A stretch of 53,506 bases of DNA from Candidatus Zixiibacteriota bacterium (GCA_900498245.1 LS998015.1:1430352-1483857); one strand, 5' to 3'. Numbered from the stretch's first letter, positions 11,037-40,856 are shown. A program made the numbers and translations. The notes: generated by a model not told the origin, from the sequence alone.

Positions 11037-11786
11037 GTGAAAAACGGCAAGAGATTCTTGGGGATTATAGGAGGCATGGGAGCGGAAGCAGGGGCGGTTC
11101 TTTACGAGCGAATTATCAGATTGACTCCGGTAGAGGTCGATCAGGATCATATCGAAAGTCTGCTTTATTCCAACACCACGATTCCGGATAGGACCAAGGC
11201 CATTTTGAACGAGGGGCCCAGTTCTTATCCCCCCCTTCTGGATTCGGCGCGTCTTTTGGAAAGAAATGAAGTGGACCTGATTATCCTGGGTTGCGTAACA
11301 TCCCATCATTACATCGAGGCCCTGCGCAAAGAAATAAAGTGCGAAGTGTTGAGTGCCATTGAAGAGACACTCGAGCAGATTAAAAGCCGTGCTCCTCGGG
11401 CGAAAAAGGTAGGAATTCTAGGAACAACGGGGACCATTCGAACCGAATTATTTCAGAAGGCCCTGAAAGCCGCCAGCTTGGAGCCGCTGATTTTGCCCGA
11501 TGATATTCAAGAGAAGTTTGTGATGGGGGCACTGTACGCTCCCGACGGCATCAAGGCCGGTTATCAGCAGCCGGCGCGGGATAAAATGCTGGTGGCGATG
11601 AACTGGCTGCTCTTAAATGGAGCCGAGGCCATTATCTCCGGGTGTTCGGAGTTCCCGCTACTGTTCGATCAAGACGATTGTCTGGTGCCGCTGGTCGATG
11701 CTATGGATGCTTTGATCCGCAAAGCAATTTTCCGCTGCACGGGCCGAGAGGCGCTCGAACGGCCTAATCGACAAATAGACGATTAA
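11037..11786 (+). CDS. Aspartate/glutamate racemase family protein
   Basis: This is a 249-residue PLP-independent racemase of the Asp/Glu superfamily. N-terminal GIIGGMG (residues 9-15) is the phosphate or carboxylate loop. The two catalytic cysteines are C86 (LGCVTSHH) and C203 (SGCSEFPLL), both present, so the protein is probably active. It would supply D-aspartate or D-glutamate. Start is a GTG preceded by GAGG. Its 3' end overlaps, by 23 nt and tail to tail, the asparagine-synthase-like gene on the minus strand. The setting suggests a D-amino-acid substituent on the polysaccharide, though a general metabolic role is possible. Confidence 0.85.
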   Translation: MKNGKRFLGIIGGMGAEAGAVLYERIIRLTPVEVDQDHIESLLYSNTTIPDRTKAILNEGPSSYPPLLDSARLLERNEVDLIILGCVTSHHYIEALRKEIKCEVLSAIEETLEQIKSRAPRAKKVGILGTTGTIRTELFQKALKAASLEPLILPDDIQEKFVMGALYAPDGIKAGYQQPARDKMLVAMNWLLLNGAEAIISGCSEFPLLFDQDDCLVPLVDAMDALIRKAIFRCTGREALERPNRQIDD

Positions 11787-13623
11787 ACAGTTCGAACCCG
11801 AGAAGAGACGACAGATTTCCGGCACCGGGGGCGCCGCGGCGCTGTTTTTTCAGAAGCATCTCCAGATGGGGCATATTGTAATATCCGCGGCGGCGGGTGC
11901 GTTCATCAAGCAACACCGATTCATAAAAATCACGGACCTCGGGGCAGGCACGGTACCACTGGTTATAATGGTGATAATTTTTCTTATTGTATAGAATCAG
12001 TTTACCGGCCGACAGGCGTTCCAAATAATGGCGCATTTTTCCGCGCCAGGCTTCATATTTTTTGCTGAAATTCGAGCGTGTTTGATAGAGGTTGACGCCG
12101 GTGCCCTGATATGTGATCCGGGCCAGGTCCGGCAATTTGGCCAGAAAATAATCACGCATAAAGACTCGTCCGGGTTTTAAGTGGGCCGGCAGTTTGAGGT
12201 AAAAATCGACCAGCCTATCATCGGCCAGGGCAAAATGATCGTGCCAGAAGAATCGGTTGCAGTCGACTTGATTCATATAGCGGGCCAGGCGATTTTTAAT
12301 AAAGAAAATGTCCTTCTGATTACAGTACCAGGGGGAAACTTTTTCACAGGCCCGAAATTCATCGTCGATAGAAGGCAAATATCGGTCCTTTAAAAATTGC
12401 CGGAATTGATCGGTGAAACAGAAGAAGAAATCATCATCGAGAAAATCTCCGCCCAGAGTAAATTTTATGCGGTTAAGTTTTTCTTCATGACTGATATCTT
12501 TTACGATTTCGGACGGCTTAAAATAAGAGGAGCCGAAATTGGTCGGCCCGCCGAAGATACCGTTGAGGAATACCGACGATTCGGCGGGAAGGCCGTATTG
12601 CTTGCCGATGCCGATAAGAATGGCCGGGCTGTTGTCCATCATGCCGTCGGATAAAAATATCATCTGCTCGGAATATTGAGCGATCCAGCGGGGATCGATT
12701 TCTATAAAGCGGAAATGCTCCAGTTTGAGGAACCGAGCCACGTCTTTGGCCACTTTGTAATCAAGACAACCTTTGATGCCGTGCGTGAAGGTACGGGGAT
12801 TGTGTCCGGCCAGAAGCGTATGGTGTAATATAAAACGGGAGTCGAGGCCACCGGAAAGGGGCAGGATGATATTTCGGGCCTGACCGATTCTTTTCCTGAT
12901 AATCTGCCCGTAAAGGGCATCGACCTCCTCGATCATCTCCGGGATCGGCTGACGGGATTCCTCGCCGTAATGATAGTCCCAGTATTGTCTGACGGATATC
13001 TGTCCGTTTTGATAATTCAAAAGGCTGGCGCCGGGCAATTTTCTGGCGCCGCTGAACATGGTTTTGTCCCCCATCAGATATCCATAATTGAAATAATCAG
13101 CCACGGCGTTATTGTTGAGGGCCTTTTTGAAATTTTCGTAAGCGAGAAACGCTTTGACCTCAGTGGCGAACAGGAAATACCGGTCATCCTCAAAGATATA
13201 AAGATGGCGGTGGCCGAAACGATCGTTGCCAATTGTGACCCGCTTATGCTCCAAGTCAAAGATCACAGCATTGAAAGAACCGTCGATTTTCTCCGGCCAA
13301 TTATCCGGCGAAGCTCGATAAATATCAATAAGACGGGTCGCCTTTTTATCGGTCGGGGCTGAAATTTGTCCGGATTGAACATTCTTCCAATCATAAATAT
13401 AACCGGAAAAGGCGGAGGCCATTTGTCGCCTTTCATCGATTGCAAGTCTTTCCTCACCTTCAAGGGGAAGTTCCACAAGTCCGAAGGCGAACCAGGCGCC
13501 GGAATATGTCTGAGAAGTAAATTGCTCATTATATGAAAGGCGGTTCTTCATTTCTTGAATGAGTTTCTCATTCGCGTCCCTATCCTCATTCTGTTTTCTT
13601 ATGACGCCAAAGATTCCCGGCAT
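11764..13623 (-). CDS. Asparagine-synthase-like amidotransferase lacking the catalytic cysteine
   Basis: This 619-residue protein has the two-domain plan of asparagine synthetase B. The N-terminal Ntn glutaminase-like domain (1 to about 200) begins MPGIFGV: the nucleophile Cys2 is replaced by Pro, so it should not hydrolyse glutamine. The C-terminal ATP-pyrophosphatase domain has an intact P-loop, LSGGLDSR at 256-263. Such enzymes form amides or related bonds from an acyl-adenylate. Related proteins occur in exopolysaccharide loci and as ring-closing enzymes in lasso-peptide and beta-lactam pathways. It is the only minus-strand gene within the locus, with its own ribosome binding site (AGAGGA, 8 nt before ATG). 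The substrate and nitrogen donor are unknown; free ammonia or an amino group is inferred. Confidence 0.85.
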   Translation of the reverse strand: MPGIFGVIRKQNEDRDANEKLIQEMKNRLSYNEQFTSQTYSGAWFAFGLVELPLEGEERLAIDERRQMASAFSGYIYDWKNVQSGQISAPTDKKATRLIDIYRASPDNWPEKIDGSFNAVIFDLEHKRVTIGNDRFGHRHLYIFEDDRYFLFATEVKAFLAYENFKKALNNNAVADYFNYGYLMGDKTMFSGARKLPGASLLNYQNGQISVRQYWDYHYGEESRQPIPEMIEEVDALYGQIIRKRIGQARNIILPLSGGLDSRFILHHTLLAGHNPRTFTHGIKGCLDYKVAKDVARFLKLEHFRFIEIDPRWIAQYSEQMIFLSDGMMDNSPAILIGIGKQYGLPAESSVFLNGIFGGPTNFGSSYFKPSEIVKDISHEEKLNRIKFTLGGDFLDDDFFFCFTDQFRQFLKDRYLPSIDDEFRACEKVSPWYCNQKDIFFIKNRLARYMNQVDCNRFFWHDHFALADDRLVDFYLKLPAHLKPGRVFMRDYFLAKLPDLARITYQGTGVNLYQTRSNFSKKYEAWRGKMRHYLERLSAGKLILYNKKNYHHYNQWYRACPEVRDFYESVLLDERTRRRGYYNMPHLEMLLKKQRRGAPGAGNLSSLLGFELFNRLFVD

Positions 13624-16429: not shown

Positions 16430-17308
16430 ATGATAGCTGTCGATTGGGAAAAAGTTAATTTTCCAAATCCGTCAATAATTGAAAAGCATGATTATTTTGA
16501 TCGCGGCGGCAAAAAGATTTTCCGAGCCGAATATCTTCCCGCGGGTGGATTTAATTCCGGGGTGGTTCTTTGTTCTCCTTTTGCGGAAGAGAAAGTCAGG
16601 ACATTGCGCATCTATGTTTCGCTGGCCCGTGCTCTGGCGGCTGTCGGCGTGGGCGTCGTTAGCTTTGACTATTTCGGCGACGGCGACAGTGAAGGGAATT
16701 TTGAAGAAGCATCGCTTGAGGACCGTCTGCTGGACATTGAATCAATATTCATCGACTTCAGGAGCCGCCACCGCCTTGAAAAATCGGTGCTTTTGGGTCT
16801 TCGCTGGGGAGCCACTCTGGCGGCGCTGTCGGCGGAGAAATTGAGTCCTGATCTCCTGGTGCTCTGGGAACCGATAATAGATACCGGCAAATTTTTCTAT
16901 GACTATTTACGAATCAACCTCGCTTCGCAAATGCTGATTGAGGGCAAGGTCTCCCGCAACCGCGATGACCTGGTGCGGGTTATGCGGGAGGGAGCGGCGG
17001 TCACGGTTGAGGGATATAATATCACCGGCAGATTTTATGACGGGGCGACGGCAGCGACATTAAAGGGAAAAGCCCAAAATTATCCCGGGGCGGCCCTGAT
17101 CATGCAAATTGCGGCGGCGCCCGACAGGATTCGCCCCGAACTGGAAACGCTCCGGGGAGCGTTTGACCGGGCTGAAATTCGGGCCGTGCCACGTGAATTT
17201 GAATGGGAAAAGACAGAAACCTGGCGGCCGGCGCCGCCCTTATTGTTTGGTGAAACGTTCAGCTTTTTGGAAAGAAATGGGTTTTTCGGAAGAAATATTC
17301 AGTCTTAA
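16430..17308 (+). CDS. Alpha/beta hydrolase-like protein, exosortase-system hydrolase 2 type, Arg at nucleophile elbow
   Basis: This is a 292-residue alpha/beta hydrolase-fold protein. The conserved FDYFGDGDSEG stretch (79-89) matches the usual D-xx-G-x-G-x-S segment. The nucleophile elbow is GLRWG (123-127), with Arg where GxSxG has Ser. From family knowledge, the exosortase-A-associated hydrolase 2 group shows a similar GLR elbow, so this is probably a conserved feature and not decay. No obvious C-terminal His motif was seen. It overlaps the next hydrolase gene by 32 nt, so the pair is co-translated. The role is unknown; acyl handling in polysaccharide synthesis is inferred from context. 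Confidence 0.75.
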   Translation: MIAVDWEKVNFPNPSIIEKHDYFDRGGKKIFRAEYLPAGGFNSGVVLCSPFAEEKVRTLRIYVSLARALAAVGVGVVSFDYFGDGDSEGNFEEASLEDRLLDIESIFIDFRSRHRLEKSVLLGLRWGATLAALSAEKLSPDLLVLWEPIIDTGKFFYDYLRINLASQMLIEGKVSRNRDDLVRVMREGAAVTVEGYNITGRFYDGATAATLKGKAQNYPGAALIMQIAAAPDRIRPELETLRGAFDRAEIRAVPREFEWEKTETWRPAPPLLFGETFSFLERNGFFGRNIQS

Positions 17309-18230
17309 AAATAACAAGGGCGAAATGATGTACGGGGTGGTTCATCATCCCGCCCGGCCTAACGGGGCGCTGGTGATGATGTTCAATATCGGACTTCATT
17401 ATCGGGTCTGCCATTCCCGCCTTTTTGTTCGTCAGGCGCGCGACTTGCAGAACAGAGGATTTTTGGTGGTGCGGATGGATACTTCCAAGGTCGGGTACAG
17501 CCACGGGGAGATTCCAGTCGGCCGGGCAATCGATTCATATGACGCCGTCCAGACGGGGTTATTCAAAGATGATGCTCTGATATTTTTAACGTACTTGCGA
17601 GACCGATTCCGGCCGAAGAAAATATTTTTCACCGGTCTGTGCGGGGGGGCTCTGACAGCGATTATAGCGGGAGCCGCGGCCGGTGAAGTTGACGGAGTGG
17701 TTTTTATTGCCGGTCCCGTGACAGTAACCTCGCCCGAATACGAACTCTCGACCATGCATCCCTTTCAAGCCGATATCCTGGTCGCGGGGTATCTGAAACG
17801 GTTGATGAGTCCTTCGGCTTGGGCCAGATTTTTTTCCGGACGAACCTCATATCGAAGCTTGTTCACTTCGCTTAAAGTCAAGCTGGCAACCAAATTCAAG
17901 AGGGATAACGCTGGCATCGGCGAGGCGACAAACATGGGCGGTGATGAAGAAGAAAATAAGGGAGACCTGTTTAACCGGGTCTTTTATGAATCATTCGAGG
18001 CCCTCATGAGAACCGAGCGGAAAATTCTTTTTCTTATGCCGGAGCTGGATCGCGCCACCTATGACTTTGACAGTATCTTCGCCAGGCAAGTGCTGGGTCA
18101 TTTCGCGCAGTCGTCACATCTGTTTAAAGTGGCCCGGATACCGAAAGCCAATCATACTTTTTCCACCCCGGAATCGACGCGATGTCTTTTTGAAGAAACC
18201 GCCAACTGGCTCAATTCCAATCTTTCCTGA
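17277..18230 (+). CDS. Alpha/beta hydrolase-like protein, exosortase-system hydrolase 1 type, Cys at nucleophile elbow
   Basis: This is a 317-residue alpha/beta hydrolase-fold protein. The start was placed at the ATG at 17277 (GGAAAG just upstream). A longer frame back to 17109 is only overlap with the previous gene. DTSKVGYSHG (68-77) corresponds to the D-xx-G-x-G-x-S strand. The nucleophile elbow is GLCGG (120-124), putting Cys122 where Ser is usual. A candidate catalytic His is H293 (NHTFSTPE). The GLC elbow recalls the exosortase-A-associated hydrolase 1 group. It ends 3 nt before the next gene, in one operon. Confidence 0.75.
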   Translation: MGFSEEIFSLKNNKGEMMYGVVHHPARPNGALVMMFNIGLHYRVCHSRLFVRQARDLQNRGFLVVRMDTSKVGYSHGEIPVGRAIDSYDAVQTGLFKDDALIFLTYLRDRFRPKKIFFTGLCGGALTAIIAGAAAGEVDGVVFIAGPVTVTSPEYELSTMHPFQADILVAGYLKRLMSPSAWARFFSGRTSYRSLFTSLKVKLATKFKRDNAGIGEATNMGGDEEENKGDLFNRVFYESFEALMRTERKILFLMPELDRATYDFDSIFARQVLGHFAQSSHLFKVARIPKANHTFSTPESTRCLFEETANWLNSNLS

Positions 18231-20539: not shown

Positions 20540-21982
20540 ATGGCGGAACCATATCAGACATATCAACCGAAGCCAATTGTCACGGCTAAAGGACTGATCT
20601 TCCTGGCTCTCATAGTCGGCAGTTTGATTTTGGGGGGGCTGGCGGCGTTGGTAAATCCCCTTTATTTGATTTTGGGCGTGGTCGGTTTGGTGGTCATTTT
20701 TCTCATGGTCAAATATGACTATTTCGGGCTTTTGGTTTATCTCCTCGTGTTTCTTATGCGGCCGGGTGAGACATACACTTTTCTGGCGAAAGTCCGCATC
20801 GAATTGATACTCGGAGCCTGCCTGGCGTTTCTGGCCCTGATAAAGAATAAATACCGCTACGGTCACTTTACAATCCCGGATAATAAACTTAATCTTGATA
20901 TGCTTTTAATCCTGGGGGCGATGTGTCTATCCTTTTCGCTATCTTCGTGCAAGGATTGCACCATAAATGCGATTCAGGAATTGCTGAAACTGGCCATATT
21001 CTTCCTTCTGATAATACTTACCATAGACACACGCAAGAAATTGGAGATATTCATCTGGGCGTTTCTATTGATAAACGCCAAACTGACATTCGATATTAAC
21101 TGGGGTTTTTATCATGGTCAGGCCGTCTACAATCAGGGGCTGGAAAGAGCCACCGGGGGAAATTCCGCAATGGACAATTTTAACGGTATCGCCATCACGA
21201 TGAACACCATGATACCGTTCGCCTACTACCTGTTTTTCTATTACCGGGAGTACTGGCAGAAGATTTTGATGCTGGGGTGCCTGATTTTATTTTCCTGGAC
21301 CCTTATTATCACCGGCTCGCGGGGCGGGTTATTGGGTTTCCTGGGGATACTGGGAATTATATGGCTGCAATCCAAAAGAAAACTGGCGTTAGGGTTATTT
21401 TTTATTGTTTTCATGGCGGCAGGATGGACCATGCTCGGCGCTTCCAGTAAGGCCAGATATGAGACTATCTTCGATAAAAATCTCGATGAATCATCGGAGA
21501 ATCGGGTTCTGGCATGGGAAGACGGGCTGGAGATGGCCATTATTCGTCCTGTAACCGGCGTGGGAGCCGGGGCCTTTGCCTGGGCCCGAGTGGAAAGATT
21601 CGGGCGCTATCTCAATCCGCATAATATGTATATTCAGGTGCTCGCGGAATTGGGTTTTATCGGAGCCTTCATATATTTCATGTTTGTAATAGATATTTTT
21701 CGATTCAATTTCAGATTATTGAAAAGTGTGCCGTCCCGGGGATCGCCTTTAGCGCTTTTGAGACCGCTGTCGCGAGCGATCATTGCATCATGCGGATCTC
21801 TATTGATAACCGGCATTTTTGCCCATTCGGCATATCGCTATACCTGGTATTTCGTGGCGGCCCTGACCGTGATTGCCATGCAATTTGTGAGAGAAATGAA
21901 AGCCGTCGAAGAATCGTCTTCTGCCGGAAATTTGGCCGTGTCGGCATCCGGCATCGACAGCGGTTCCAAGGTCAACGGGTAA
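20540..21982 (+). CDS. O-antigen ligase/polymerase family membrane protein
   Basis: This is a 480-residue multi-spanning membrane protein with about 11 or 12 hydrophobic segments. The motif TGSRGGLLGF in the large central part, followed by a long extracytoplasmic loop (about 270-350) with NRVLAWEDGLEMA and GVGAGAF, is the Wzy/WaaL pattern. It would polymerise or ligate exported repeat units. Exosortase-type exopolysaccharide loci carry a related protein. It starts 6 nt after the preceding gene and ends 5 nt before the next. Confidence 0.85.
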   Translation: MAEPYQTYQPKPIVTAKGLIFLALIVGSLILGGLAALVNPLYLILGVVGLVVIFLMVKYDYFGLLVYLLVFLMRPGETYTFLAKVRIELILGACLAFLALIKNKYRYGHFTIPDNKLNLDMLLILGAMCLSFSLSSCKDCTINAIQELLKLAIFFLLIILTIDTRKKLEIFIWAFLLINAKLTFDINWGFYHGQAVYNQGLERATGGNSAMDNFNGIAITMNTMIPFAYYLFFYYREYWQKILMLGCLILFSWTLIITGSRGGLLGFLGILGIIWLQSKRKLALGLFFIVFMAAGWTMLGASSKARYETIFDKNLDESSENRVLAWEDGLEMAIIRPVTGVGAGAFAWARVERFGRYLNPHNMYIQVLAELGFIGAFIYFMFVIDIFRFNFRLLKSVPSRGSPLALLRPLSRAIIASCGSLLITGIFAHSAYRYTWYFVAALTVIAMQFVREMKAVEESSSAGNLAVSASGIDSGSKVNG

Positions 21983-21987
21983 ACAGG

Positions 21988-23379
21988 ATGAGTTTATTTT
22001 CAGCATCAGTACGTCGTATCCTGCTGCCATATTTATTGGCGCGTGAAAAAAAAGGCTCGGCTCTTAAACATTGGCGATTTTTCGAAAAGAGCCAGTATTG
22101 GACACTTGATCGGCTTCGCGCTTATCAATGGGAAAATCTAAAAAAATTATTGCGGCACGCATATGATACATCGCCTTTTTATACGGCGGTTTTCAAGGAA
22201 CGCGGCCTGACTCCGGATTCAATCCGGAGTTTCGACGATTTGTCACTTTTGCCGATTCTTACGCGCAATGATCTCTTTGAAAAAAGCCGGGATATATTAT
22301 CTAAAAGTTACAATCCGGAAAAACTGCAGCGAGTTTTAACGGGCGGAACGACAGGGCAGCAGGCGCCACTCTACCGGGATCAGGAGAGTTTTAATCTGAA
22401 GTTGGCTATCGAATGGCGTCACGAGAGTTATATGGGGCGAAACCCTTGCGACCGGATGGCCCTGATTTGGCCGGCGCATATAGATGTTGTCCATGACGAA
22501 CCACTGAGGTCGAAATTGAAAGCCCGCTATCTATTGGGGCAGTATCTGTTCAGTGCCGGCACCAGCGATCCCAAAATAATGGAAAAATTCTATCGTGACA
22601 TACGGGATTACCGGCCCGAATTCTTCAAAGTCTTCCCGGCGGCCTTTTATGGCTTAACCAGGTACATTTCAGAAAAAGGGTACCGGCCGCCGCGAGTAAA
22701 GGGGATCTTATCGACCGGGGAACCGCTGTATGAAAAGCAGAGGAAATTATTCGAAGAATATTATGGATGTCCCGCTTACGACATGTACGGTTCCCGTGAA
22801 GTCGGCAATACCGCTTCGGAATGCCCGGCGCATGAGGGATTGCATGTGGCGATGGAGACGTCGTATGTGGAATTTATCGATAAGGGAAAACCGGTCGATT
22901 ACGGCAAAGAGGGGGAGATATTAATTACGGATCTTACCAATTTTGCCTTCCCTCTGATTCGTTACCAAATTAATGACTATGGAGCGCCGATCGAAAAAGC
23001 CTGTTCCTGCGGCCGAGGACTCCAATTAATGAGTCCGGGGGTCGGTCGCCTGATCGATGATTTTTGGGGACCGGACGGTGTTCGGCATACAGGAAATGTC
23101 CTGGGAATTCATCTGACCGCCGAACCGGCTCATGAAATCGGGCAAATGCAGGTGATTCAGAAGACCCTTACCGACTTTATTGTAAAAATCACCCACAAGC
23201 CGGAACCTTCGCAAGAGGTTCTGGATTTTATTCCGATGCAGATGAAGAAAATTATCGGTCAAGGGATAAATGTAAGGATTGAAATTGTGGATGAAATACC
23301 TCGAGAGAAATCAGGTAAGACGCGATTCCTGAAATGTGAGATAGACCCGCCAGCCGGCATACTTCACGGCGATAGTTAG
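21988..23379 (+). CDS. PaaK/CapK-like adenylate-forming enzyme (second copy)
   Basis: This 463-residue ANL-superfamily protein is related to the one at 9638. The start at 21988 follows the ligase stop by 5 nt; the frame extending back to 21790 is overlap. The ATP loop is TGGTTGQQAP (118-127). YGSREVGNTASEC and CSCGRGLQLM match the first copy, and the C-terminal EKSGKTRFLK carries the likely catalytic Lys. It should activate an acid for polysaccharide decoration. Having two copies suggests two different acids, or activation and transfer shared between them. Confidence 0.85.
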   Translation: MSLFSASVRRILLPYLLAREKKGSALKHWRFFEKSQYWTLDRLRAYQWENLKKLLRHAYDTSPFYTAVFKERGLTPDSIRSFDDLSLLPILTRNDLFEKSRDILSKSYNPEKLQRVLTGGTTGQQAPLYRDQESFNLKLAIEWRHESYMGRNPCDRMALIWPAHIDVVHDEPLRSKLKARYLLGQYLFSAGTSDPKIMEKFYRDIRDYRPEFFKVFPAAFYGLTRYISEKGYRPPRVKGILSTGEPLYEKQRKLFEEYYGCPAYDMYGSREVGNTASECPAHEGLHVAMETSYVEFIDKGKPVDYGKEGEILITDLTNFAFPLIRYQINDYGAPIEKACSCGRGLQLMSPGVGRLIDDFWGPDGVRHTGNVLGIHLTAEPAHEIGQMQVIQKTLTDFIVKITHKPEPSQEVLDFIPMQMKKIIGQGINVRIEIVDEIPREKSGKTRFLKCEIDPPAGILHGDS

Positions 23380-26721: not shown

Positions 26722-27848
26722 AAATTCTTCATCTGCGCGCCTCCAATTTCTACGGCGGGCCGGAACGGCAACTGCATTATCATGCTCGTCTGGCGCGAGG
26801 GACGGAATTTGAAATTGTCCTCGGTTCTTTTTCGGAAAAGGGGTCAGCGCCGGAATTGCTGAATATAGCAGAAAAAGAAGGGCTGGCGGTTAAACTGTTT
26901 GAAGTGAAAAACGCCTATGATAGACGGGCTCCCGGCATGATCCGGGATTATTTGACAATAGAAAAAATTGATTTGCTCTGTACACATGACTATCGTTCCC
27001 ATATCCTGGGATACCGCGGCGTGAAGAAAACGGGGGCGCGATGGGTGGCTTTTTCCCGCGGCTGGACCAAAGATACTCTTAAGGTGCGGATATTTACATT
27101 AGTCGAGAAAATAGTTATTCGGTTTGCGGACCATATCGTGGCGGTCTCAAATGCTCAAAAGGATAAACTGACAGCCCTTTCAATCCCGACCGAGGAAATT
27201 ACCGTGGCCCATAACGCCATTGATATTGAAAGCCTTAAAAATGTCGTTACAGTGGATTTGAAAAAACGGTTCAATTTTCCCGAAGAGGCCGTCGTAATAG
27301 TCGCAGGGGGAAGATTCAGCCGGGAGAAGGGGCAAGTATATTTGATTAAAGCCGCTGAGCAGACCCTGAAAAAAAATGATAGACTACGATTTCTATTGTT
27401 CGGCGATGGCCCCGATTGGACAAAAGTGAAAAATATTATAGTGCAAGAGCATTTGGAGGATAAAATTATCTGCCCGGGATTTGAAAAGAATCTCCTGGGC
27501 TGTATCAAGGCGGCGGATATACTGGTTAATCCGTCATTGTCCGAAGGACTGCCCAATATTGTGCTGGAAAGCATGGCCCTGGAAGTCCCGGTGATCGCCA
27601 CGGCCGTGGGAGGGGTCCCGGAATTAATTAAAGACGGATTCAACGGCCTTCTGGTGCCTAAGGCCGATGCGAGATCCCTGAGTGAAGCCATAATCAAGTT
27701 GGCCAGAGACCGGGAATTAAGACGGAAATATGCCGGTGCGGCTTCGGGAACTCTGGCCGGCACGTTCTCATTTGAGAGGCAATTGGTAATTCTCGGAGAG
27801 ATGTACCGTCAAATGGCAGGTGACGGCCCTAGGGGATCGGGAAAATGA
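26718..27848 (+). CDS. Family 4 glycosyltransferase
   Basis: This is a 376-residue GT-B enzyme. LRASNFYGGPERQL is the acceptor-side motif near the N-terminus, VAGGRFSREKGQ begins the second domain, and NPSLSEGLPNIVLESMA carries the E-x7-E donor-binding motif. It follows the family plan of enzymes building exopolysaccharide backbones and overlaps both neighbours by ATGA. Confidence 0.88.
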   Translation: MKILHLRASNFYGGPERQLHYHARLARGTEFEIVLGSFSEKGSAPELLNIAEKEGLAVKLFEVKNAYDRRAPGMIRDYLTIEKIDLLCTHDYRSHILGYRGVKKTGARWVAFSRGWTKDTLKVRIFTLVEKIVIRFADHIVAVSNAQKDKLTALSIPTEEITVAHNAIDIESLKNVVTVDLKKRFNFPEEAVVIVAGGRFSREKGQVYLIKAAEQTLKKNDRLRFLLFGDGPDWTKVKNIIVQEHLEDKIICPGFEKNLLGCIKAADILVNPSLSEGLPNIVLESMALEVPVIATAVGGVPELIKDGFNGLLVPKADARSLSEAIIKLARDRELRRKYAGAASGTLAGTFSFERQLVILGEMYRQMAGDGPRGSGK

Positions 27849-28876
27849 AGAATCTTGCCAGAAAAATTCTCAATTCAATATTCTATTTCAGCGGCATTTG
27901 GCTGATAATCAGATATTGGAATCGTCACAAGTTGATCATATTGATGTATCACGGCGTGGTCGAGCAAGATACAGGTGTCTGGACGCAAATCCCCGGGGGT
28001 TATTTTGTCCCCCATATGCGATACCTCAGCAAATCGTATAGGGCCATTAAAGGATCAGATCTCGTAAAGGCCCTGTCACAAGGTGATAACTATCGGGTTC
28101 TGGTGACTTTCGATGACGGTTTTAAAAATAACAGAATAATCGCCTATCCCATTTTGGAAGATTATAAAATCCCCGCCGTTATTTTTGTGACAACATCATT
28201 TATTGAAGGGCATGAAAAGTGGGGACGGTATATCTGGACCGACTATGTCGGCCTGGTGCTGAAACATGCCCGGGCCCCAGAAATCGATTTGGGCCATTTT
28301 GGATTGGGGACTTTGGAACTTGACAGCAGGGGGAAAAAATTGGAGGCCCGATCCGGAATTAATGCCTACCTCAAAAGAACCGATACCGCCATAAGAGATA
28401 GCGTAATAGAAGAATTGGTCCGCCTAGCCGATCCGAAGATGCCATTTCCGGACGGAGAGATATTTGAGAGTTTGGGTTGGGAAGATATTATTTACATGTC
28501 GAAGAACGGAAATATCGAATTCGGAGCCCATACGGTAAATCATGAAATTCTGACCTCGATATCTGCAGAGGACGCCCGAAAGGAGATTCGCCGATCAAAG
28601 GAACTTTTGGAATCGAGGACCGGTTTGAAAATTGCGGCATTTGCGTATCCCAACGGAACCGCCGAGGATTTCAACGAAAATATTAAGGGCATGACAGCGG
28701 AATATTATGAGTGGGCAGTCAGCACTATCGAGGGGTTGAATGATGCCGGGTCGGATATTTATGAATTGAAGCGTATCAATGTCGGCAATGATATGTCACT
28801 TCGGGGATTGAAGCTGGCCATGTCCGGGACGTCGGAAGTGGTCAATCGTATTTTTCGTTTTGGGCGACACAAATAA
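27845..28876 (+). CDS. Polysaccharide deacetylase (CE4/NodB family)
   Basis: This 343-residue enzyme would remove N- or O-acetyl groups from the polysaccharide. MYHGV (34-38) is the N-terminal motif, TFDDGF (88-93) holds the metal-binding aspartates and AHTVNH (228-233) gives the two metal-binding histidines H229 and H233. AYPNG corresponds to the conserved RxPY region. A hydrophobic stretch at 10-25 could anchor it. Polysaccharide deacetylases are a regular member of exosortase-type loci. ATGA overlap with the preceding gene shows the operon. Confidence 0.88.
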   Translation: MKNLARKILNSIFYFSGIWLIIRYWNRHKLIILMYHGVVEQDTGVWTQIPGGYFVPHMRYLSKSYRAIKGSDLVKALSQGDNYRVLVTFDDGFKNNRIIAYPILEDYKIPAVIFVTTSFIEGHEKWGRYIWTDYVGLVLKHARAPEIDLGHFGLGTLELDSRGKKLEARSGINAYLKRTDTAIRDSVIEELVRLADPKMPFPDGEIFESLGWEDIIYMSKNGNIEFGAHTVNHEILTSISAEDARKEIRRSKELLESRTGLKIAAFAYPNGTAEDFNENIKGMTAEYYEWAVSTIEGLNDAGSDIYELKRINVGNDMSLRGLKLAMSGTSEVVNRIFRFGRHK

Positions 28877-28882
28877 TGAGGC

Positions 28883-30001
28883 ATGATGAAGATCAGAGTA
28901 ATCGATAATCTTGATGAATTTAAATCACTGGAGGTGGAATGGGAAGAGCTTTTGACTCATTATCCGGGCAGGAATCCCTTCCTGACTTTCGAATGGATGC
29001 TGGCCTGGCTGGAGATATTTGGAAAAGAAGTCAGACTGTTCGTGATTGCGGTCCATCAGGATGAGAAATTGTGCGGGATCGCTCCACTATGCATGAGGAC
29101 GAACGGCACCCTAACTTTCGTCGGATATCCTCAGAATGATTATGCCGATATTATAGTCGATCCGGAATCACCGGGAACTCTCGAAGCCATTGTCACGGTC
29201 ATCTCAAATTCGAAAAACAAATGGAAAAAGGCGATTCTTGACCAACTACCCGAAAATAACTCTCAAGCGGATGGCTTACGTCATATTTTGGAAAAGGAAG
29301 GATACCCCTTCCGGGTGGAACGATCCGATGCCTGCCCGGCCATGATTCTTGACGACATTGCCGCCGCCAAAAAAATGTACTATAAAAGGAATATCACTAC
29401 GTACATAAACTGGTTCAAGCAACAGGGGAATTTTAATTATACCGTATGGAGCGAAACCACGGCCGCCCTGCAGCATCTTGAAGAACTATTTTTACAGCAT
29501 ATCAAGCGCTGGGAAGGAAGCGCCACGCCGAGCGCTTTCAAGAACGAGACCATGAAAGAATTCTACCGGGCTTTTGTCCGGCGAATGCATCCCCGGGGGT
29601 GGGTGCAAGTCTCCGGTTTGACGCTCGATGATAAATTCCCGGCGCTTTATCTTTCGTTCGAGTTCAATGGCATATTGTATCTATATAAGACCTGTTTCAA
29701 TCCCGAGTACTACAAGAAGTCTCCCGGACAGGTTATATTGCGCTACCTTTTCGATTATGCCGCGGAGCACAATTTGAAGGAGCTCGATTTCGCCCGGGGC
29801 GACGAAGGTTACAAGGATCGTTTTGCCAATGCCGTTCGCCAGAATCGCCGCCTGGTGATATATAAAAGTGACGGGGCCATGAAAGCGGCCGAGCTCTATA
29901 ATTCCTTTCGTCAGTCAAAATTGGTCGATATCTTATATCGGAACAAAGCGGTCAAAAAAATTAAATATCGAATATTGCAGATTTATCGGGGTAAAAATTA
30001 G
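28883..30001 (+). CDS. FemAB/CelD-like GNAT acyltransferase
   Basis: This is a 372-residue protein of the FemAB/CelD (BioF2-type GNAT) group. NPFLTFEWMLAWLE (residues 31-44) is the typical N-terminal segment, and the second half contains the acetyltransferase fold with ALYLSFEFNGILYLYKTCFN and ELDFARGDEGYKDRF. Members transfer acyl or aminoacyl groups; a FemAB-related protein is common in exosortase-associated polysaccharide loci. Two adjacent ATGs (28883 and 28886) are possible starts. The donor is unknown; an aminoacyl or acyl group from the carrier or ligase system of this locus is an inference. Confidence 0.8.
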   Translation: MMKIRVIDNLDEFKSLEVEWEELLTHYPGRNPFLTFEWMLAWLEIFGKEVRLFVIAVHQDEKLCGIAPLCMRTNGTLTFVGYPQNDYADIIVDPESPGTLEAIVTVISNSKNKWKKAILDQLPENNSQADGLRHILEKEGYPFRVERSDACPAMILDDIAAAKKMYYKRNITTYINWFKQQGNFNYTVWSETTAALQHLEELFLQHIKRWEGSATPSAFKNETMKEFYRAFVRRMHPRGWVQVSGLTLDDKFPALYLSFEFNGILYLYKTCFNPEYYKKSPGQVILRYLFDYAAEHNLKELDFARGDEGYKDRFANAVRQNRRLVIYKSDGAMKAAELYNSFRQSKLVDILYRNKAVKKIKYRILQIYRGKN

Positions 30002-35277: not shown

Positions 35278-36255
35278 TTGAAATTCAGTAAAGATTCTTT
35301 AAAAATTGACGCCGCCCGCGTAACCGACGAATTGTGCCAGGAGATTCTCCATCAAGTGCGGGTTGAACTCAAAAAAAGCGGCGCGGTGATCGGCATTTCC
35401 GGAGGAATTGACTCTTCGGTGACAGCCGCTCTTTGTGCTCGGGCTCTTGGGCCGGAACGGGTCCTGGGAATTATGTTGCCCGAAAAGGAATCGGCTGGGG
35501 AAAGCAAAACCCTTGCGGAGAGTCTGTCGCAAAAATTCGGATTTGAGGCGATTCTGGAAAATATTTCAGGAGGATTGGAGGGAATGGGTTGTTACCGCCG
35601 CCGCGATGAAGCGATCAGGACGGTCTTCCCCGAATACAGTCCGGATGAGTATAAATGCAAAATCGTCATCCCGCAAAATATTCTGGAGAAAGATACCTTC
35701 AATTTCTTCAATTTGACGATTGAAAACGATAAGGGTGTAGTAAAATCAAAACGGATGCCGCTTCAGGCTTATTTGCAGATCGTGGCGTCCTCCAATCTTA
35801 AGCAGCGACTTCGCATGACAACCCTATATTATCATGCGGAAAAGCGGAACTGGGCCGTGGCGGGAACCGGGAACAAAGACGAACATGAGCAGGGTTTTTT
35901 TGTCAAATACGGCGATGGCGGTGCGGATCTGAAACCGATAGCGCATTTGTTCAAAATACAGGTCTATCAACTGGCGGAGTACCTGGGTGTGCCGCAGGAA
36001 ATTATTCAGAGGACGCCGACAACGGACACATACAGCGCCGACGTGACTCAGGAGGAATTTTTCTTCGGACTTGATTTCTATCGGATGGATATGCTCTGGC
36101 ACGCCATGGAGAAGAATGTTCCCCCGGAAGAAGCCGCGGCGGTCCTGGAATTGACCACGGATCAAGTAAAAAAAGCCTATTTTAATATTGATCGAAAAAT
36201 CAAGGCAACCGAATATTTGCGACTGGCCCCGCTGGAGATTCGGTCAAAGCTTTAG
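35278..36255 (+). CDS. NAD-synthase-like ATP-pyrophosphatase (copy 1)
   Basis: This 325-residue protein is related to ammonia-dependent NAD synthetase. The PP-loop SGGIDSS is at 41-47, and the downstream core GTGNKDEHEQGFFVKYGDGG and LFKIQVYQLAEYLGVP keep the NadE pattern. It is longer than NadE (about 270) owing to an insert at about 100-175. The TTG start is supported by alignment of MKFSKDSLKI with MKFGKELLKI of the second copy at 38249. Enzymes of this fold make an amide from an acyl-adenylate. Two copies flank a carrier protein and an AMP ligase, which argues for a role in a carrier-bound pathway and not in NAD synthesis. Ordinary NadE activity cannot be excluded. Confidence 0.82.
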   Translation: MKFSKDSLKIDAARVTDELCQEILHQVRVELKKSGAVIGISGGIDSSVTAALCARALGPERVLGIMLPEKESAGESKTLAESLSQKFGFEAILENISGGLEGMGCYRRRDEAIRTVFPEYSPDEYKCKIVIPQNILEKDTFNFFNLTIENDKGVVKSKRMPLQAYLQIVASSNLKQRLRMTTLYYHAEKRNWAVAGTGNKDEHEQGFFVKYGDGGADLKPIAHLFKIQVYQLAEYLGVPQEIIQRTPTTDTYSADVTQEEFFFGLDFYRMDMLWHAMEKNVPPEEAAAVLELTTDQVKKAYFNIDRKIKATEYLRLAPLEIRSKL

Positions 36256-36312
36256 ATATTGATCCGGCGGGTTTATAAGAAGAAATTCAATATTAATTTT
36301 TAAGGAAATATT

Positions 36313-36576
36313 ATGGCAGCGATTGAACAAGGTTCCATTAAAACGAAAGTAAGGGGATTCATAACAGATACTTTTTTGATCGGCAATGACAAAGCTAAAC
36401 TCGGCGACGCCGATTCTTTTATGCAATTGGGCATTATCGATTCCACGGGTGTTCTGGAATTGGCTTCATATATTGAATCGGAATTCGGCCTGACCATTCT
36501 GGATAATGAAATGGTCCCCGAGAATCTCGATTCAATCGAAAATATTGCCAAGTATGTTCACCGAAAGATAAGTTGA
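36313..36576 (+). CDS. Acyl/peptidyl carrier protein
   Basis: This is an 87-residue carrier protein. GIIDSTGVLEL contains the D-S motif, with Ser44 as the site for the 4'-phosphopantetheine arm, followed by a helix-rich C-terminus (FGLTILDNEM). It is acidic and of normal length. The ribosome binding site is AAGGAAA. It lies immediately before an AMP ligase, so it is probably charged by that enzyme. Carrier proteins of this sort are found in exosortase-type loci. Confidence 0.88.
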   Translation: MAAIEQGSIKTKVRGFITDTFLIGNDKAKLGDADSFMQLGIIDSTGVLELASYIESEFGLTILDNEMVPENLDSIENIAKYVHRKIS

Positions 36577-36641
36577 AAATCTATCGATTCGGCCCGGTTA
36601 ATTATCAAATACCGGAGCTTCTTGCGGGATAAGTAATTGCA

Positions 36642-38222
36642 ATGAGAATTTTTGATATACTTGCCAATAGCGCCGCTGTCTATCCGGGAAATATCGCGGT
36701 TCGCCATGATGGTCGCAGTATGAATTACCGGGAGTTATATGAAAGTGCAGTCGGCCTGGGTAAATATCTCGAAACTTTGCGGCTTCCGCCGGATACCAGG
36801 GCGGCAATTCTTTTTGAAAATTGCGCTGAATATCTGATTGCATTCTTTGCAGTTTTCAGAGCGGGTCTGGTTGCGGTACCGCTGGATACTTCCCTTCCTC
36901 CGGAGAAGATTAACGCAATATTGATCGATTCGCAGGCCGAAATATTGCTATGTCAGGCGAAATTTGAACGTCATCTTGACAGAATGATGGGTGATACGCC
37001 GCCGATAAAATTTATAATCACCGAAAGGAAACTACAGCGGCCGCCCGAGACCGTAGTCGGCGCAACATTAGAAGAGATTCTAAGCGATCCCAATTTAAAG
37101 GACAAAATATTCCCCGAAAAAAAATCGGCAGATTCACTGGCCTATGATTTAAAACAGGAATCGGTAGCCGCGCCTCACGAACTGGCGGCCATTTTTTACA
37201 CCTCGGGAAGTACCGGAAGTTCCAAAGGGGTGATGCTCTCCCACCGGAATCTGATTTCCAATACTATCGCTACGGTTATCTATCTCAAACTGGAGGCCCG
37301 AGACAAGGTCATGGTCATTTTGCCGTTTTATTATATTTACGGCAATTCCCTTCTTTTGACCCATATCCTGGCGGGCGGAACGCTTGTCATCGACAACCGC
37401 TTTTTATATCCGGAAGTGGTTCTGGATACCATGCAGAAAGAACAAGTCACCGGCTTCTCCGGGGTCCCTTCCAATTTCATGATCATGCTGAATAATTCCA
37501 GTCTGGCAACACGCTCCTGGCCGCACTTGCGCTACTTCACGCAGGCGGGAGGGGCGATGGCCCCGGAGGTGGTTCGTCGTCTGATGACGGCCTTTCCCGA
37601 CAAAGAAATTTATATTATGTACGGCCAGACGGAGGCGGCGCCGCGTGTGTCGTATTGCCCGCCCGAAAAATTAAATGAAAAAATCGGGTCGATCGGAATA
37701 CCGGTCCCCGGCGTCACCATAAAGGTGATGGATGACGACGGACATGAGGTGCCAATAGGGACCGACGGTGAACTGGCGGTCCTCGGCGACAATGTTATGC
37801 TTGGCTACTGGAATCAGCCCGAAGAGCAGAAGCAGGTTCTTCGGGACGGCTGGCTGTTTACCGGTGATTTGGCGCGGCAGGATAGGGACGGCTATTTTTA
37901 TATTGTGGGCCGAAAAAAGGAAATTATCAAGGCGGGAGGAAAGCGGGTCAGTGCCAAGGAGGTGGAGGAGTGTATCCTGGAACACCCCCAGGTGGCCGAG
38001 GCGACCGTATTTGGTATCAAGGATGATATTCTTGGTGAAGCAATAAAAACCGTAATAGTATTGAGACAGGGGACGGATCTGAGTGTTAAAGAGATACAGA
38101 ATTATTGCCGGTCAAAACTGGCCGAGTTCAAAGTGCCCAAATATATAGTATTTGCGGATTCATTGCCCAAGTACAAGTCGGGTAAAGTCAACAAGATGCT
38201 ACTTATGAATAAAAGTGTTTGA
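36642..38222 (+). CDS. AMP-dependent acyl/aminoacyl ligase (exosortase-locus ligase type)
   Basis: This is a 526-residue ANL-superfamily ligase. The ATP loop YTSGSTGSSKG is at 186-196, YGQTEAAPR further on, then GELAVLGDNVMLGYWN, the hinge GDLARQDRDGYFYIVGRKKE and the C-terminal catalytic lysine in SGKVNK (K515). It would adenylate a carboxylic acid and load it on the carrier protein encoded 65 nt upstream. The acid is unknown. It resembles the acyl-CoA ligase that accompanies exosortase-A loci. The stop overlaps a TTG of the next frame, but the real next start is 38249. Confidence 0.87.
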   Translation: MRIFDILANSAAVYPGNIAVRHDGRSMNYRELYESAVGLGKYLETLRLPPDTRAAILFENCAEYLIAFFAVFRAGLVAVPLDTSLPPEKINAILIDSQAEILLCQAKFERHLDRMMGDTPPIKFIITERKLQRPPETVVGATLEEILSDPNLKDKIFPEKKSADSLAYDLKQESVAAPHELAAIFYTSGSTGSSKGVMLSHRNLISNTIATVIYLKLEARDKVMVILPFYYIYGNSLLLTHILAGGTLVIDNRFLYPEVVLDTMQKEQVTGFSGVPSNFMIMLNNSSLATRSWPHLRYFTQAGGAMAPEVVRRLMTAFPDKEIYIMYGQTEAAPRVSYCPPEKLNEKIGSIGIPVPGVTIKVMDDDGHEVPIGTDGELAVLGDNVMLGYWNQPEEQKQVLRDGWLFTGDLARQDRDGYFYIVGRKKEIIKAGGKRVSAKEVEECILEHPQVAEATVFGIKDDILGEAIKTVIVLRQGTDLSVKEIQNYCRSKLAEFKVPKYIVFADSLPKYKSGKVNKMLLMNKSV

Positions 38223-38248
38223 ATACAGGTATCCCGAAAGGAAGAAAT

Positions 38249-39238
38249 ATGAAATTCGGCAAGGAGTTACTCAAGATTGATCCGGCCCGGGAGGCGGCTC
38301 TGGCACAAGAGTTTCTTCAGGCGGCCATCAAAAGTGTCCCCAAACGCGATGGTATAATTGTCGGTGTCAGCGGGGGGGTTGATTCGGCGGTTGTGGTATC
38401 ATTGGCGGTGCGGGCGGTCGGAAAGGATAACGTCCTTGCATTGATTCTCCCGGAAAAGGAGTCAAATCCCATTTCCGCCCAGTATGCCGAAAAAATAATC
38501 AGTCAATTGGGGGTGGCTTACAAGACGGTGGAACTGACCAACACGGTGGCCAGTTTGGGGACATATAATAATCGTGACGCCCTCATTCAGGACATATTTC
38601 CCGAGTATGGGCCCGGATTCAAACATAATATTTTTCTTCCCCAGAATATTCTGGAAGTGGATCGCTATAATTTCTATACCCTGCGAATCGATGACGGAAA
38701 AGGGAACCGGAAAGAGAAGCGTCTGTCCAAGAAGCAGTTTCTAGCCATAACGGCCGCGGCCAATGTCAAAATTCGATCCCGAATGCTGGCACTCTATTAC
38801 TGGGGGGATCAATATAATTATCTGGTGGCCGGCACCACCAACAAGACGGAATTTCTACTGGGAGATTACTGCAAATATGGGGATGGCGGAACCGATGTCG
38901 AAGGGATTTCTCATTTATATAAACTTCAAATATATCAACTGGCCGAATATTTGAACGTCCCGAAGGAAATAATAGAAAGAACTCCCAGCCCGGATACATT
39001 CAGTCTGCCGGTTTCGGATCAGGATTTCTACTTCGTGCTTCCTTTTGACCTGCTCGATCCGCTGCTCTATGCCTGGGAGTATAAAACGAATATCAAGGAT
39101 GTGGCGGCCGGATTGAATTTAACGGAAGAGCAAATTCTCCGCTGTTACAAAGATTTCAGTTCGAAATTCGCCTCCACCGAGCATATTCGTCAGCTCCCGA
39201 AGGCGATCGAACGGGACTGGACCCGGTATAAAGGATAG
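38249..39238 (+). CDS. NAD-synthase-like ATP-pyrophosphatase (copy 2)
   Basis: This 329-residue protein is a paralogue of the one at 35278. SGGVDSA at 41-47 is the PP-loop, and GTTNKTEFLLGDYCKYGDGG and LYKLQIYQLAEYLNVPKE follow. The ATG at 38249 was chosen over a TTG at 38219 because AAAGGAAG lies in front of it and the N-terminus then matches copy 1. The two copies differ in residues of the region that binds the acceptor in NadE, so they may use different substrates or form a heteromer. The setting is the carrier/ligase cassette. Confidence 0.82.
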   Translation: MKFGKELLKIDPAREAALAQEFLQAAIKSVPKRDGIIVGVSGGVDSAVVVSLAVRAVGKDNVLALILPEKESNPISAQYAEKIISQLGVAYKTVELTNTVASLGTYNNRDALIQDIFPEYGPGFKHNIFLPQNILEVDRYNFYTLRIDDGKGNRKEKRLSKKQFLAITAAANVKIRSRMLALYYWGDQYNYLVAGTTNKTEFLLGDYCKYGDGGTDVEGISHLYKLQIYQLAEYLNVPKEIIERTPSPDTFSLPVSDQDFYFVLPFDLLDPLLYAWEYKTNIKDVAAGLNLTEEQILRCYKDFSSKFASTEHIRQLPKAIERDWTRYKG

Positions 39239-39347
39239 AAATCGGAATTTGACCGGTGGAATGAATTTGCTTTACTGACGATTTGCGATATCTTATAATA
39301 ATAGAGATGTGAAGGCGGTTTCCCTAAGCCCGGCCTATCGGAAAAGA

Positions 39348-40856
39348 ATGGAAACGGAAAAGAATAAAAGGACGATTGAAGTCAGCGATATTTTTCGCGT
39401 CGCCTGGCGGCGCAAATGGCTGATTGTAATTCCCTTGATACTGGTAGCGGCGGCGGCTTATTTTGGTTCTTATCTGATCACGCCCGAATATGAATCATCC
39501 ATCATAATATATCTCGGAAATCCGGTGAGACTTTCCGACCAATTGCGGCGAATGGTCGGTGATGTCGGCAATGTATTGGGCGATAACAGATATCGGGAGT
39601 CGGAACTGCAGAGTCTCCAGAACGAGGTGACATCGACCCCGTATATTCAGCGGTTGGTGGACAAACTTCATCTCGATCAGGATCCCTCCCTTGACAAAAG
39701 GGCAGAGAAGTTACGTAAGGCCCGCCCCGATTTGTCGATGTCCCAGGTTCGCTTCAGCCTGATACTGAATGACCTTCGAGATCGTGTCGGCATCAGTTCG
39801 GCCGGTTTGGAACAGGTCAGGATATCGGTTCTGTCGCCCGATCCTTTCAAGGCCCGCGATATCGCCCAGAACCTGGGTGAAATACTGATGGATGAAAAGA
39901 CCAAGCAGGCGCTGGGGTCGGTTCGTCTTTCGCAGGATTTTACCTATGATCAACTGGCCAAATATGAGAAGGATTTGCAGGATAAAATCGATGAAAAGAC
40001 GAGATTCGAAAAACAGAATATGGGCGTTCAGCTGAATGAACTGGTGGTATCCGATTCCAACCGCAAGGCGATCAGCGGAGAAATCGACGCCATAAACGCC
40101 GATATTCAGGAAAAGAAGAGCGAGGAAACGGGGCTATTGAGCAAACTGAACAATGTTCCCTCGAGCAAGTTGGTTCTGCCCGATTCACCCGATTTGCAGC
40201 GGATGACGAACGATATTCAAAATCTTCTGAAATCCGTTTCAAGTTTAATGCCGCGCTATCGTTGGAGCGATCCCGAAATACTTAATTATAAGACAAAGCT
40301 TTATAATTATATAAATAATGTCGAGGATGAAATCAGGAGGCTGGTTGATGTCCAATTTGCTCAGTATGATGCCCCGACCCGGGACCTAATTGTACAGCTA
40401 TTCAGTTTGAGGACAGAGCTGGACATTTTGTACTCCAAATCAAATATCCTGAAGCTGGCTCTCGATGATATCAATCAGAAAATAAATGCCTTTCCCGATT
40501 ATCAGGCCCGATTGGAACAATTAAACCGTGAAATAAATGCGGCCCGCGATCTGCGGGATCGTTTCAAGGAACAGCAGGAAGGTTCGCAGATTTCCCAGGC
40601 TCTTTTGAGCGAGGCCCGTTTTCAGGTGATAGAGCCGGCCAAGGTTCCGATGGAACCGGTCCGCCCCAATCGCATCAAGATCCTGGTAATGGGATTGATC
40701 CTTGGACTGATGATTGGCGCCGGCGTGGCTCTTCTGGCAGAACTGATGGATAATTCTTTCAAAAAGGTCGAAGAAGTCGAAGATTACCTCGGTTATCCGG
40801 TGCTGGGCGTTATTCCTGATATTGCCACCCTGAAGAAAGCGTCCAAATCCTTTTAG
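39348..40856 (+). CDS. Polysaccharide chain-length determinant (Wzz/co-polymerase family)
   Basis: This is a roughly 502-residue inner-membrane protein that sets polymer length. A first membrane helix is at about 24-44 after a short cytoplasmic part; a long periplasmic region rich in heptads lies at about 45-460 (for example LQDKIDEKTRFEKQN and LEQLNREINAARDLRDRFKE); a second helix lies at about 463-486 preceded by the Pro-rich VPMEPVRPNR. No Walker A/tyrosine kinase domain is present at the C-terminus. A GTG at 39309 gives 13 more residues; the ATG at 39348 has GGAAAAG just before it. It is the last gene of the locus. Confidence 0.87.
   Translation: METEKNKRTIEVSDIFRVAWRRKWLIVIPLILVAAAAYFGSYLITPEYESSIIIYLGNPVRLSDQLRRMVGDVGNVLGDNRYRESELQSLQNEVTSTPYIQRLVDKLHLDQDPSLDKRAEKLRKARPDLSMSQVRFSLILNDLRDRVGISSAGLEQVRISVLSPDPFKARDIAQNLGEILMDEKTKQALGSVRLSQDFTYDQLAKYEKDLQDKIDEKTRFEKQNMGVQLNELVVSDSNRKAISGEIDAINADIQEKKSEETGLLSKLNNVPSSKLVLPDSPDLQRMTNDIQNLLKSVSSLMPRYRWSDPEILNYKTKLYNYINNVEDEIRRLVDVQFAQYDAPTRDLIVQLFSLRTELDILYSKSNILKLALDDINQKINAFPDYQARLEQLNREINAARDLRDRFKEQQEGSQISQALLSEARFQVIEPAKVPMEPVRPNRIKILVMGLILGLMIGAGVALLAELMDNSFKKVEEVEDYLGYPVLGVIPDIATLKKASKSF

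What the first reader, a model, noticed from the sequence alone, without database searches (positions are those of the whole stretch)
35278..39238. Cassette of NAD-synthase-like enzyme, carrier protein, AMP ligase, second NAD-synthase-like enzyme
Two paralogous NadE-like ATP-pyrophosphatases (SGGIDSS and SGGVDSA loops) flank a carrier protein and its probable loading ligase. NAD synthesis would not need a carrier protein nor two tandem copies in a polysaccharide locus. A plausible inference is carrier-tethered amide formation, in which the ligase loads an acid and the NadE-like enzymes amidate or condense it. I know no named system with this order.
Basis: partly seen in the sequence, partly recalled or inferred. 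Interest (0 to 1): 0.72.

Follow-up and report, generated by a model that had tools for sequence, protein, structure and literature searches.

The report
Carrier-linked amide-making gene cassette
Four neighbouring genes, two of them look-alikes of the enzyme that finishes NAD, travel together across bacteria and probably attach ammonia to an acid handled by a carrier protein; they are a variant of a Sinorhizobium operon whose product is still unknown.

Summary
The cassette is real: NadE-like A (35278-36255), carrier protein (36313-36576), AMP ligase (36642-38222), NadE-like B (ATG 38249-39238), one strand, gaps of 57, 65 and 26 bp. A and B are not the cell's NAD synthases: the complete genome has a canonical nadE elsewhere, as do 42 of 45 relatives at least 90% complete. 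A and B share an insertion of about 53 residues and have replaced both P2-loop contacts to nicotinate (Ala/Leu, 31/31 in canonical copies, become Thr/Thr in A and Pro/Thr in B). The order A-carrier-ligase-B recurs in 10 loci. In other relatives slot four is a full-length AsnB amidotransferase; AsnB and B never co-occur (15 and 12 of 38 loci) and swapped at least four times. AsnB-carrier-ligase-NadE is also a stand-alone operon in Sinorhizobium, Mesorhizobium, Shinella, Azospirillum and Roseateles, almost certainly the SMb20651/SMb20650 operon, whose carrier is acylated when the ligase is co-expressed; its function is unknown. So the kind is known but unsolved; NadE replacing AsnB is the new variant. 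Best mechanism: the ligase loads an acid on the carrier and the NadE-like enzymes make amides with ammonia. Acid and product are unknown.

The parts
35278..36255 (+). NadE-like protein A, 325 aa (TTG start), N-type ATP pyrophosphatase
   Evidence: NF002048 453.6 bits, PF02540 177 bits; P2-loop nicotinate contacts replaced
36313..36576 (+). carrier protein, 87 aa, DSTG phosphopantetheine site (Ser44)
   Evidence: PF00550 23.2 bits; best NCBIfam NF052616 52 bits, below its cut-off of 130; DSTG conserved in 47 relatives
36642..38222 (+). AMP-forming acyl ligase, 526 aa
   Evidence: PF00501 284 bits, PF13193 74 bits; TIGR03098 361 bits, below its cut-off of 592
38249..39238 (+). NadE-like protein B (329 aa from ATG; open frame starts at 38219), fills the slot that AsnB has in other relatives
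   Evidence: NF002048 354.9 bits; model pLDDT 84.7, Z 27.5 to 2e18; exchange with AsnB
27845..28876 (+). polysaccharide deacetylase gene, possible partner; directly upstream of GNAT gene and cassette in L073 and L086
   Evidence: PF01522 72.6 bits; linkage in 4 of 38 loci
28883..30001 (+). GNAT-type acyltransferase gene, possible user of the acyl-carrier
   Evidence: PF13480 86.5 bits; linkage in 4 of 38 loci
39309..40856 (+). polysaccharide chain-length (PCP/Wzz-type) protein next to the cassette
   Evidence: TIGR03007 145 bits, below cut-off; near the cassette in 10 of 38 loci

Best explanation
The four genes form one biosynthetic module. The AMP ligase activates a carboxylic acid and loads it as a thioester on the carrier protein. 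The NadE-like enzymes keep the NadE fold and ATP site but not the nicotinate contacts: they adenylate a free carboxylate of the carrier-bound acid, or of a closely coupled acceptor, and let ammonia displace AMP to give an amide. B does with free ammonia the step that a glutamine-using AsnB does in sister versions. In this genome the product is probably handed to surface-polysaccharide assembly. Shown here: gene content, recurrence, separate canonical nadE, loss of nicotinate contacts, B/AsnB exchange. Shown by others for what is almost certainly the same operon in Sinorhizobium: the carrier becomes acylated when co-expressed with the ligase. Inferred: that the amide is made on the carrier, the identity of the acid, and the destination.
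For: Canonical nadE elsewhere in the same complete genome and in 42 of 45 relatives at least 90% complete. Human NadE contacts Ala573/Leu575 (PMC6946656) are Ala and Leu in 31/31 canonical copies but Thr and Thr in 39/39 A, Pro and Thr in 15/15 B; stacking Tyr525 is Phe in A and Asp in 12/15 B; P-loop, Arg, Thr, Glu ATP-site residues and the ammonia-site Asp are kept. Canonical and NadE-like clades split with 100/100 support on stems above 2. Carrier in 30 and ligase in 35 of 38 loci with room on both sides; AsnB in 15, B in 12, both in 0 (hypergeometric 5e-4, not corrected for kinship); at least 4 B/AsnB changes on the A tree. In one family, A-carrier-ligase-AsnB-PCP (L085) and A-carrier-ligase-B-PCP (L086) differ only in that slot. 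No orthologue of that AsnB in this genome. Stand-alone AsnB-carrier-ligase-NadE operons in rhizobia. Precedent for carrier-tethered amidation: AsnB homologues proposed to turn malonyl-ACP into malonamyl-ACP (PMC7756379). Carrier acylation when ligase is co-expressed in the Sinorhizobium case (PMC7232532).
Against: No direct evidence that A or B touches the carrier or its acyl group. Two amide-forming enzymes imply two amide steps or two substrates, and nothing found says which. From memory of a 2009 abstract that could not be read here, the Sinorhizobium carrier took fatty acids, which have no second carboxylate to amidate. Eleven of 38 loci have neither AsnB nor B, and L023 has A without carrier or ligase.
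Confidence: 0.42

Rival explanations
1. Sugar-uronamide route: the NadE-like enzymes amidate a nucleotide-linked or lipid-linked uronic acid, as AsnB-type WbpS does, while ligase and carrier separately supply an acyl group that the GNAT protein places on the amine freed by the deacetylase, as proposed for VimE/VimA.
For: Deacetylase and GNAT genes sit upstream in the window and abut the cassette in L073 and L086; a UDP-sugar dehydrogenase lies near it in 5 of 38 loci. AsnB-type WbpS amidates a uronic acid in Porphyromonas, with VimE/VimA acting on the same sugar (PMC7468200). The genome has an exosortase and a SprA homologue.
Against: No UDP-sugar dehydrogenase in the window; the only strong one is at C1:3429635. 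Deacetylase/GNAT linkage in only 4 of 38 loci. Rhizobial copies stand apart from sugar genes.
Confidence: 0.25
2. Lipid route: the ligase loads a long-chain fatty acid on the carrier, which donates it to an amino compound, and AsnB or the NadE-like enzymes amidate the head group, giving an N-acyl amino-acid amide or similar lipid.
For: SMb20650 is FadD-like and acylates SMb20651 in vivo, yet cannot replace FadD for CoA (PMC7232532). A dedicated acyl-ACP synthetase with its own carrier is proven for sphingolipids (PMC9386255). N-acyl amino-acid synthases have been linked to exosortase systems (Craig et al. 2011, reference seen in PMC11631085).
Against: No N-acyltransferase is a constant member of the module; the conserved 358-370 aa protein beside some rhizobial copies has no Pfam match and no profile match to the window's GNAT protein.
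Confidence: 0.2
3. A and B are spare NAD or NMN synthases placed here by chance.
For: Fold and annotation (NF002048 is named NAD(+) synthase); the NMN synthetase 3fiu shows that the fold can take a smaller nucleotide.
Against: Separate canonical nadE, replaced nicotinate contacts, steady linkage to carrier and ligase, exchange with AsnB.
Confidence: 0.03

Closest known systems
Sinorhizobium meliloti pSymB operon of carrier SMb20651 and ligase SMb20650 (Ramos-Vega et al. 2009; PMC7232532, PMC5686131)
   Same: Same module: carrier, ligase and an A-type NadE (47% identical to A), with the AsnB (49% identical to the L074 AsnB) that also fills the slot in many Zixibacteria. A carrier of this kind occurs once per pSymB record listed.
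   Different: The window has a second NadE-like gene instead of AsnB, another gene order, and lies in a polysaccharide locus. The tie to the SMb numbers rests on gene content, pSymB location and my memory of the 2009 abstract; no record with those locus tags could be read.
Malonamyl-ACP starter sets of glutarimide polyketides (ChxBCD, LtmHCD, GdsBCD; PMC7756379)
   Same: Carrier plus loading enzyme plus ATP-dependent amidotransferase, proposed to amidate the carrier-bound acyl group.
   Different: Loaded by an acyltransferase, not an AMP ligase; amidated by AsnB, not NadE; tied to a polyketide synthase.
Canonical NAD+ synthetase NadE
   Same: Fold (Z 27.5, 2.3 A over 243 residues to 2e18 for the model of B), P-loop and ATP-site residues.
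   Different: Insertion of about 53 residues, nicotinate contacts replaced, operon linkage to carrier and ligase.
Wbp/Vim linking-sugar pathway of Porphyromonas and Tannerella (PMC7468200)
   Same: Deacetylase, GNAT-type acyltransferase and an amidotransferase in one surface-glycan pathway.
   Different: No carrier or ligase described there; amidation by AsnB-type WbpS; uronic-acid genes are absent from this window.
Exosortase A (XrtA) polysaccharide loci
   Same: TIGR03098-like ligase, hydr1/hydr2, O-ligase and chain-length homologues in the same window.
   Different: All score below the curated cut-offs, and no exosortase lies in the window (one search places it at C1:3441851).

Membership tests
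NAD+ synthase (NadE) | NadE fold with SGGxDS P-loop | tested here: met
   model of B matches 2e18 at Z 27.5, 2.3 A, 243 residues
NAD+ synthase (NadE) | conserved nicotinate contacts in the P2 loop | tested here: not met
   Ala573/Leu575 replaced by Thr/Thr in 39/39 A and Pro/Thr in 15/15 B; stacking aromatic kept as Phe in A, Asp in 12/15 B
NAD+ synthase (NadE) | is the genome's only NAD synthase candidate | tested here: not met
   canonical nadE at C1:1755175-1755909
NAD+ synthase (NadE) | amidates deamido-NAD | not testable with these tools
   needs purified protein
AsnB-carrier-ligase-NadE operon (S. meliloti type) | A-type NadE, DSTG carrier and AMP ligase adjacent | tested here: met
AsnB-carrier-ligase-NadE operon (S. 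meliloti type) | AsnB-type amidotransferase in the operon | tested here: not met
   slot holds NadE-like B; no orthologue of that AsnB in the genome
AsnB-carrier-ligase-NadE operon (S. meliloti type) | carrier acylated by the ligase | not testable with these tools
   reported for SMb20651/SMb20650 (PMC7232532), not for this organism
XrtA-associated ligase TIGR03098 | score over the curated cut-off of 592 bits | tested here: not met
   361 bits
Wbp/Vim pathway | VimE-like deacetylase and VimA-like acyltransferase | tested here: inconclusive
   PF01522 and PF13480 genes side by side; TIGR03019 not matched
Wbp/Vim pathway | uronic-acid synthesis genes in the locus | tested here: not met
   no UDP-sugar dehydrogenase in the window; the sole strong one is at C1:3429635
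Malonamyl-ACP starter set | AsnB homologue with a carrier beside a polyketide synthase | tested here: not met
   no AsnB in the cassette and no polyketide synthase among the genes identified in the window

The most novel reading that the evidence does not exclude
The NadE-like family NF002048, annotated as NAD(+) synthase in Zixibacteria and Pseudomonadota, is really a family of ammonia-using amide synthetases that work on carrier-bound acids, and it has replaced glutamine-using AsnB several times within one conserved operon: a carrier-tethered amidation pathway outside polyketide synthesis.
Probability: 0.35. Interest if true: 0.75.

Novelty: new variant of a known kind. Interest (0 to 1): 0.55.

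Why it matters
Proteins annotated as NAD(+) synthase in about half of 132 genomes of this phylum, and on rhizobial plasmids, are very probably something else, so NAD metabolism is over-annotated there. The module links an orphan Sinorhizobium carrier protein, known since 2009 and still without a function, to a recurring amidation cassette in a little-studied phylum. The NadE/AsnB exchange points to amide formation as the missing chemistry, which can be tested with four purified proteins.

Tried and rejected
NAD or NMN synthesis: rejected on the separate nadE, changed contacts, linkage and exchange with AsnB. Asn synthase-like gene at 11764-13623 (-) as the missing AsnB of the cassette: rejected, 21% over 259 residues, 25 kb away, other strand, 92 bits against a cut-off of 267. 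Conserved 358-370 aa protein beside the rhizobial copies as a GNAT acyltransferase like the window's: no Pfam match, no PDB sequence match, hhalign probability 0.1%. Ligase as an amino-acid-activating enzyme: its closest solved chains include gramicidin synthase by summed domains, but the stretch LPFYYIYGNS has no Asp at the place of the amino-acid-binding Asp; suggestive only. Named outgroup hits Ignavibacterium L009 and Calditrichota L018 are not evidence of spread to other phyla: their contigs are the same as G077:C17 and G017:C296 of this phylum. Literature searches for a named system with NadE, carrier and ligase returned nothing beyond the Sinorhizobium papers.

Full report
Observation. 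The four genes are at the stated coordinates on the + strand: NadE-like A 35278-36255 (NF002048 453.6 bits), carrier 36313-36576 (PF00550 23.2 bits, DSTG site), AMP ligase 36642-38222 (PF00501 284 bits), NadE-like B in open frame 38219-39238, likely from ATG 38249 (NF002048 354.9 bits). Gaps are 57, 65 and 26 bp, so one operon is likely. The window is G000:C1:1430352-1483857 of a complete 3.5 Mb genome whose named relatives are Zixibacteria.

Not NAD synthases. The genome has a canonical nadE at C1:1755175-1755909, read as a full 280-residue frame. In the order, 42 of 45 genomes at least 90% complete have a strong canonical copy; G078 shows only a fragment and G011 and G016 none, all in broken assemblies. 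The NadE-like and canonical groups are separated with full support on stems of 2.14 and 2.86 changes per column. Both A and B carry about 53 residues that canonical NadE lacks, predicted as a helix and three strands. From the human and mycobacterial structures (PMC6946656), Ala573 and Leu575 of the P2 loop touch nicotinate and Tyr525 stacks on it. These columns are Ala, Leu and Tyr in 31/31 canonical copies; Thr, Thr and Phe in 39/39 A; Pro, Thr and mostly Asp (12/15) in B. ATP-site residues and the ammonia-site Asp are kept. The placing of the human numbers on the alignment rests on motif matching, which fits every residue the paper names. Rhizobial copies show the same PTTDT loop. The model of B is a NadE fold (Z 27.5 to 2e18).

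Recurrence. Over the family cut-off, NF002048 proteins occur in 71 of 132 genomes of the phylum. A-carrier-ligase-B in this order was read in 10 loci: the window, L010, L011, L021, L024, L064, L069, L071, L086 and L094. Of 38 loci with at least 2.5 kb on both sides, 35 have the ligase and 30 the carrier within 7 kb.

The exchange. In many relatives the gene after the ligase is a full-length AsnB with its glutaminase domain (MCGIAGY start, SGGLDSS loop; TIGR01536 513-542 bits). AsnB lies in 15 of the 38 loci, B in 12, both in none, neither in 11. Chance of no overlap is 5e-4 without correction for kinship. On a FastTree tree of A the B/AsnB state changes at least 4 times. In this genome's own family, L085 and L086 differ only in that slot. 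This genome has no orthologue of that AsnB. The simplest reading is that B and AsnB do the same step, one with ammonia, one with glutamine.

Known relatives. A search of plasmids found A-type NadE at 44-49% identity in Sinorhizobium, Ensifer, Mesorhizobium, Shinella, Azospirillum and Roseateles. Each annotated case is a tight AsnB, carrier, ligase and NadE operon, in varying order. On pSymB of S. meliloti this matches the published carrier SMb20651, co-transcribed with ligase SMb20650, which acylates it in vivo but cannot replace FadD (PMC7232532); its function was still listed as open (PMC5686131). My memory of the 2009 abstract adds AsnB and NadE as operon members and fatty acids as the acyl groups; that paper is not held.

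Mechanism. Because the four genes stay together even where no sugar genes are near, carrier, ligase and amide-forming enzymes probably work on one substrate path. AsnB homologues are proposed to amidate carrier-bound malonyl groups in glutarimide polyketide synthesis (PMC7756379), so carrier-tethered amidation has a precedent. I give the tethered or closely coupled form 0.42. The broader statement, that A and B are ammonia-using amide synthetases of this module and not NAD synthases, I hold at about 0.8. The rivals are a sugar-uronamide route with separate acyl supply (0.25) and an acyl-lipid route (0.2). For this window, a chain-length protein next door (10 of 38 loci) and the deacetylase and GNAT genes upstream (4 of 38) point to a surface polysaccharide as the destination, but uronic-acid genes are missing from the window.

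Limits. Sampling outside the phylum is by plasmids only, so the spread in other phyla is under-counted. Loci are not independent of kinship. No experiment on this organism exists.

Noticed in passing
window 11764-13623 (-): Divergent asparagine-synthase-like protein of about 618 aa, TIGR01536 only 92 bits against a cut-off of 267; matches cover only residues 70-329.
   Followed up: partly
window 21790-23379: Second AMP ligase of the PaaK/DVU_1553 kind (141 bits); its open frame overlaps the end of the O-antigen ligase gene, so its true start is later.
   Followed up: no
window 16430-18230: Pair of hydrolases resembling the exosortase-A hydr2 and hydr1 families, below their cut-offs.
   Followed up: no
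window 11037-11786: Asp/Glu/hydantoin racemase family gene (PF01177, 126 bits) inside the polysaccharide locus.
   Followed up: no
window 5892-7949: Secreted-looking protein with a dockerin type I domain (46.7 bits) in a non-cellulosome setting.
   Followed up: no
G000:C1:3441851-3442612 (-) and 3429635-3430171 (+), outside the window: Exosortase (243 bits) about 12 kb from the genome's only strong UDP-sugar dehydrogenase.
   Followed up: partly
L128, G000:C1:2339499-2340704 (-), outside the window: SprA-type type IX secretion homologue (104 bits); several locus proteins end in FlgD-like or Por-type C-terminal domains.
   Followed up: partly
L131:4140-5216, L132:4116-5225, L134:10024-11139: Conserved 358-370 aa protein without a Pfam match beside the rhizobial module; 42-72% identical to each other.
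   Followed up: partly
L079 and L088: Exosortase gene next to the ligase, AsnB, carrier and NadE module (with a DUF3485 gene beside it in L079), tying the module to exosortase loci in one family.
   Followed up: partly
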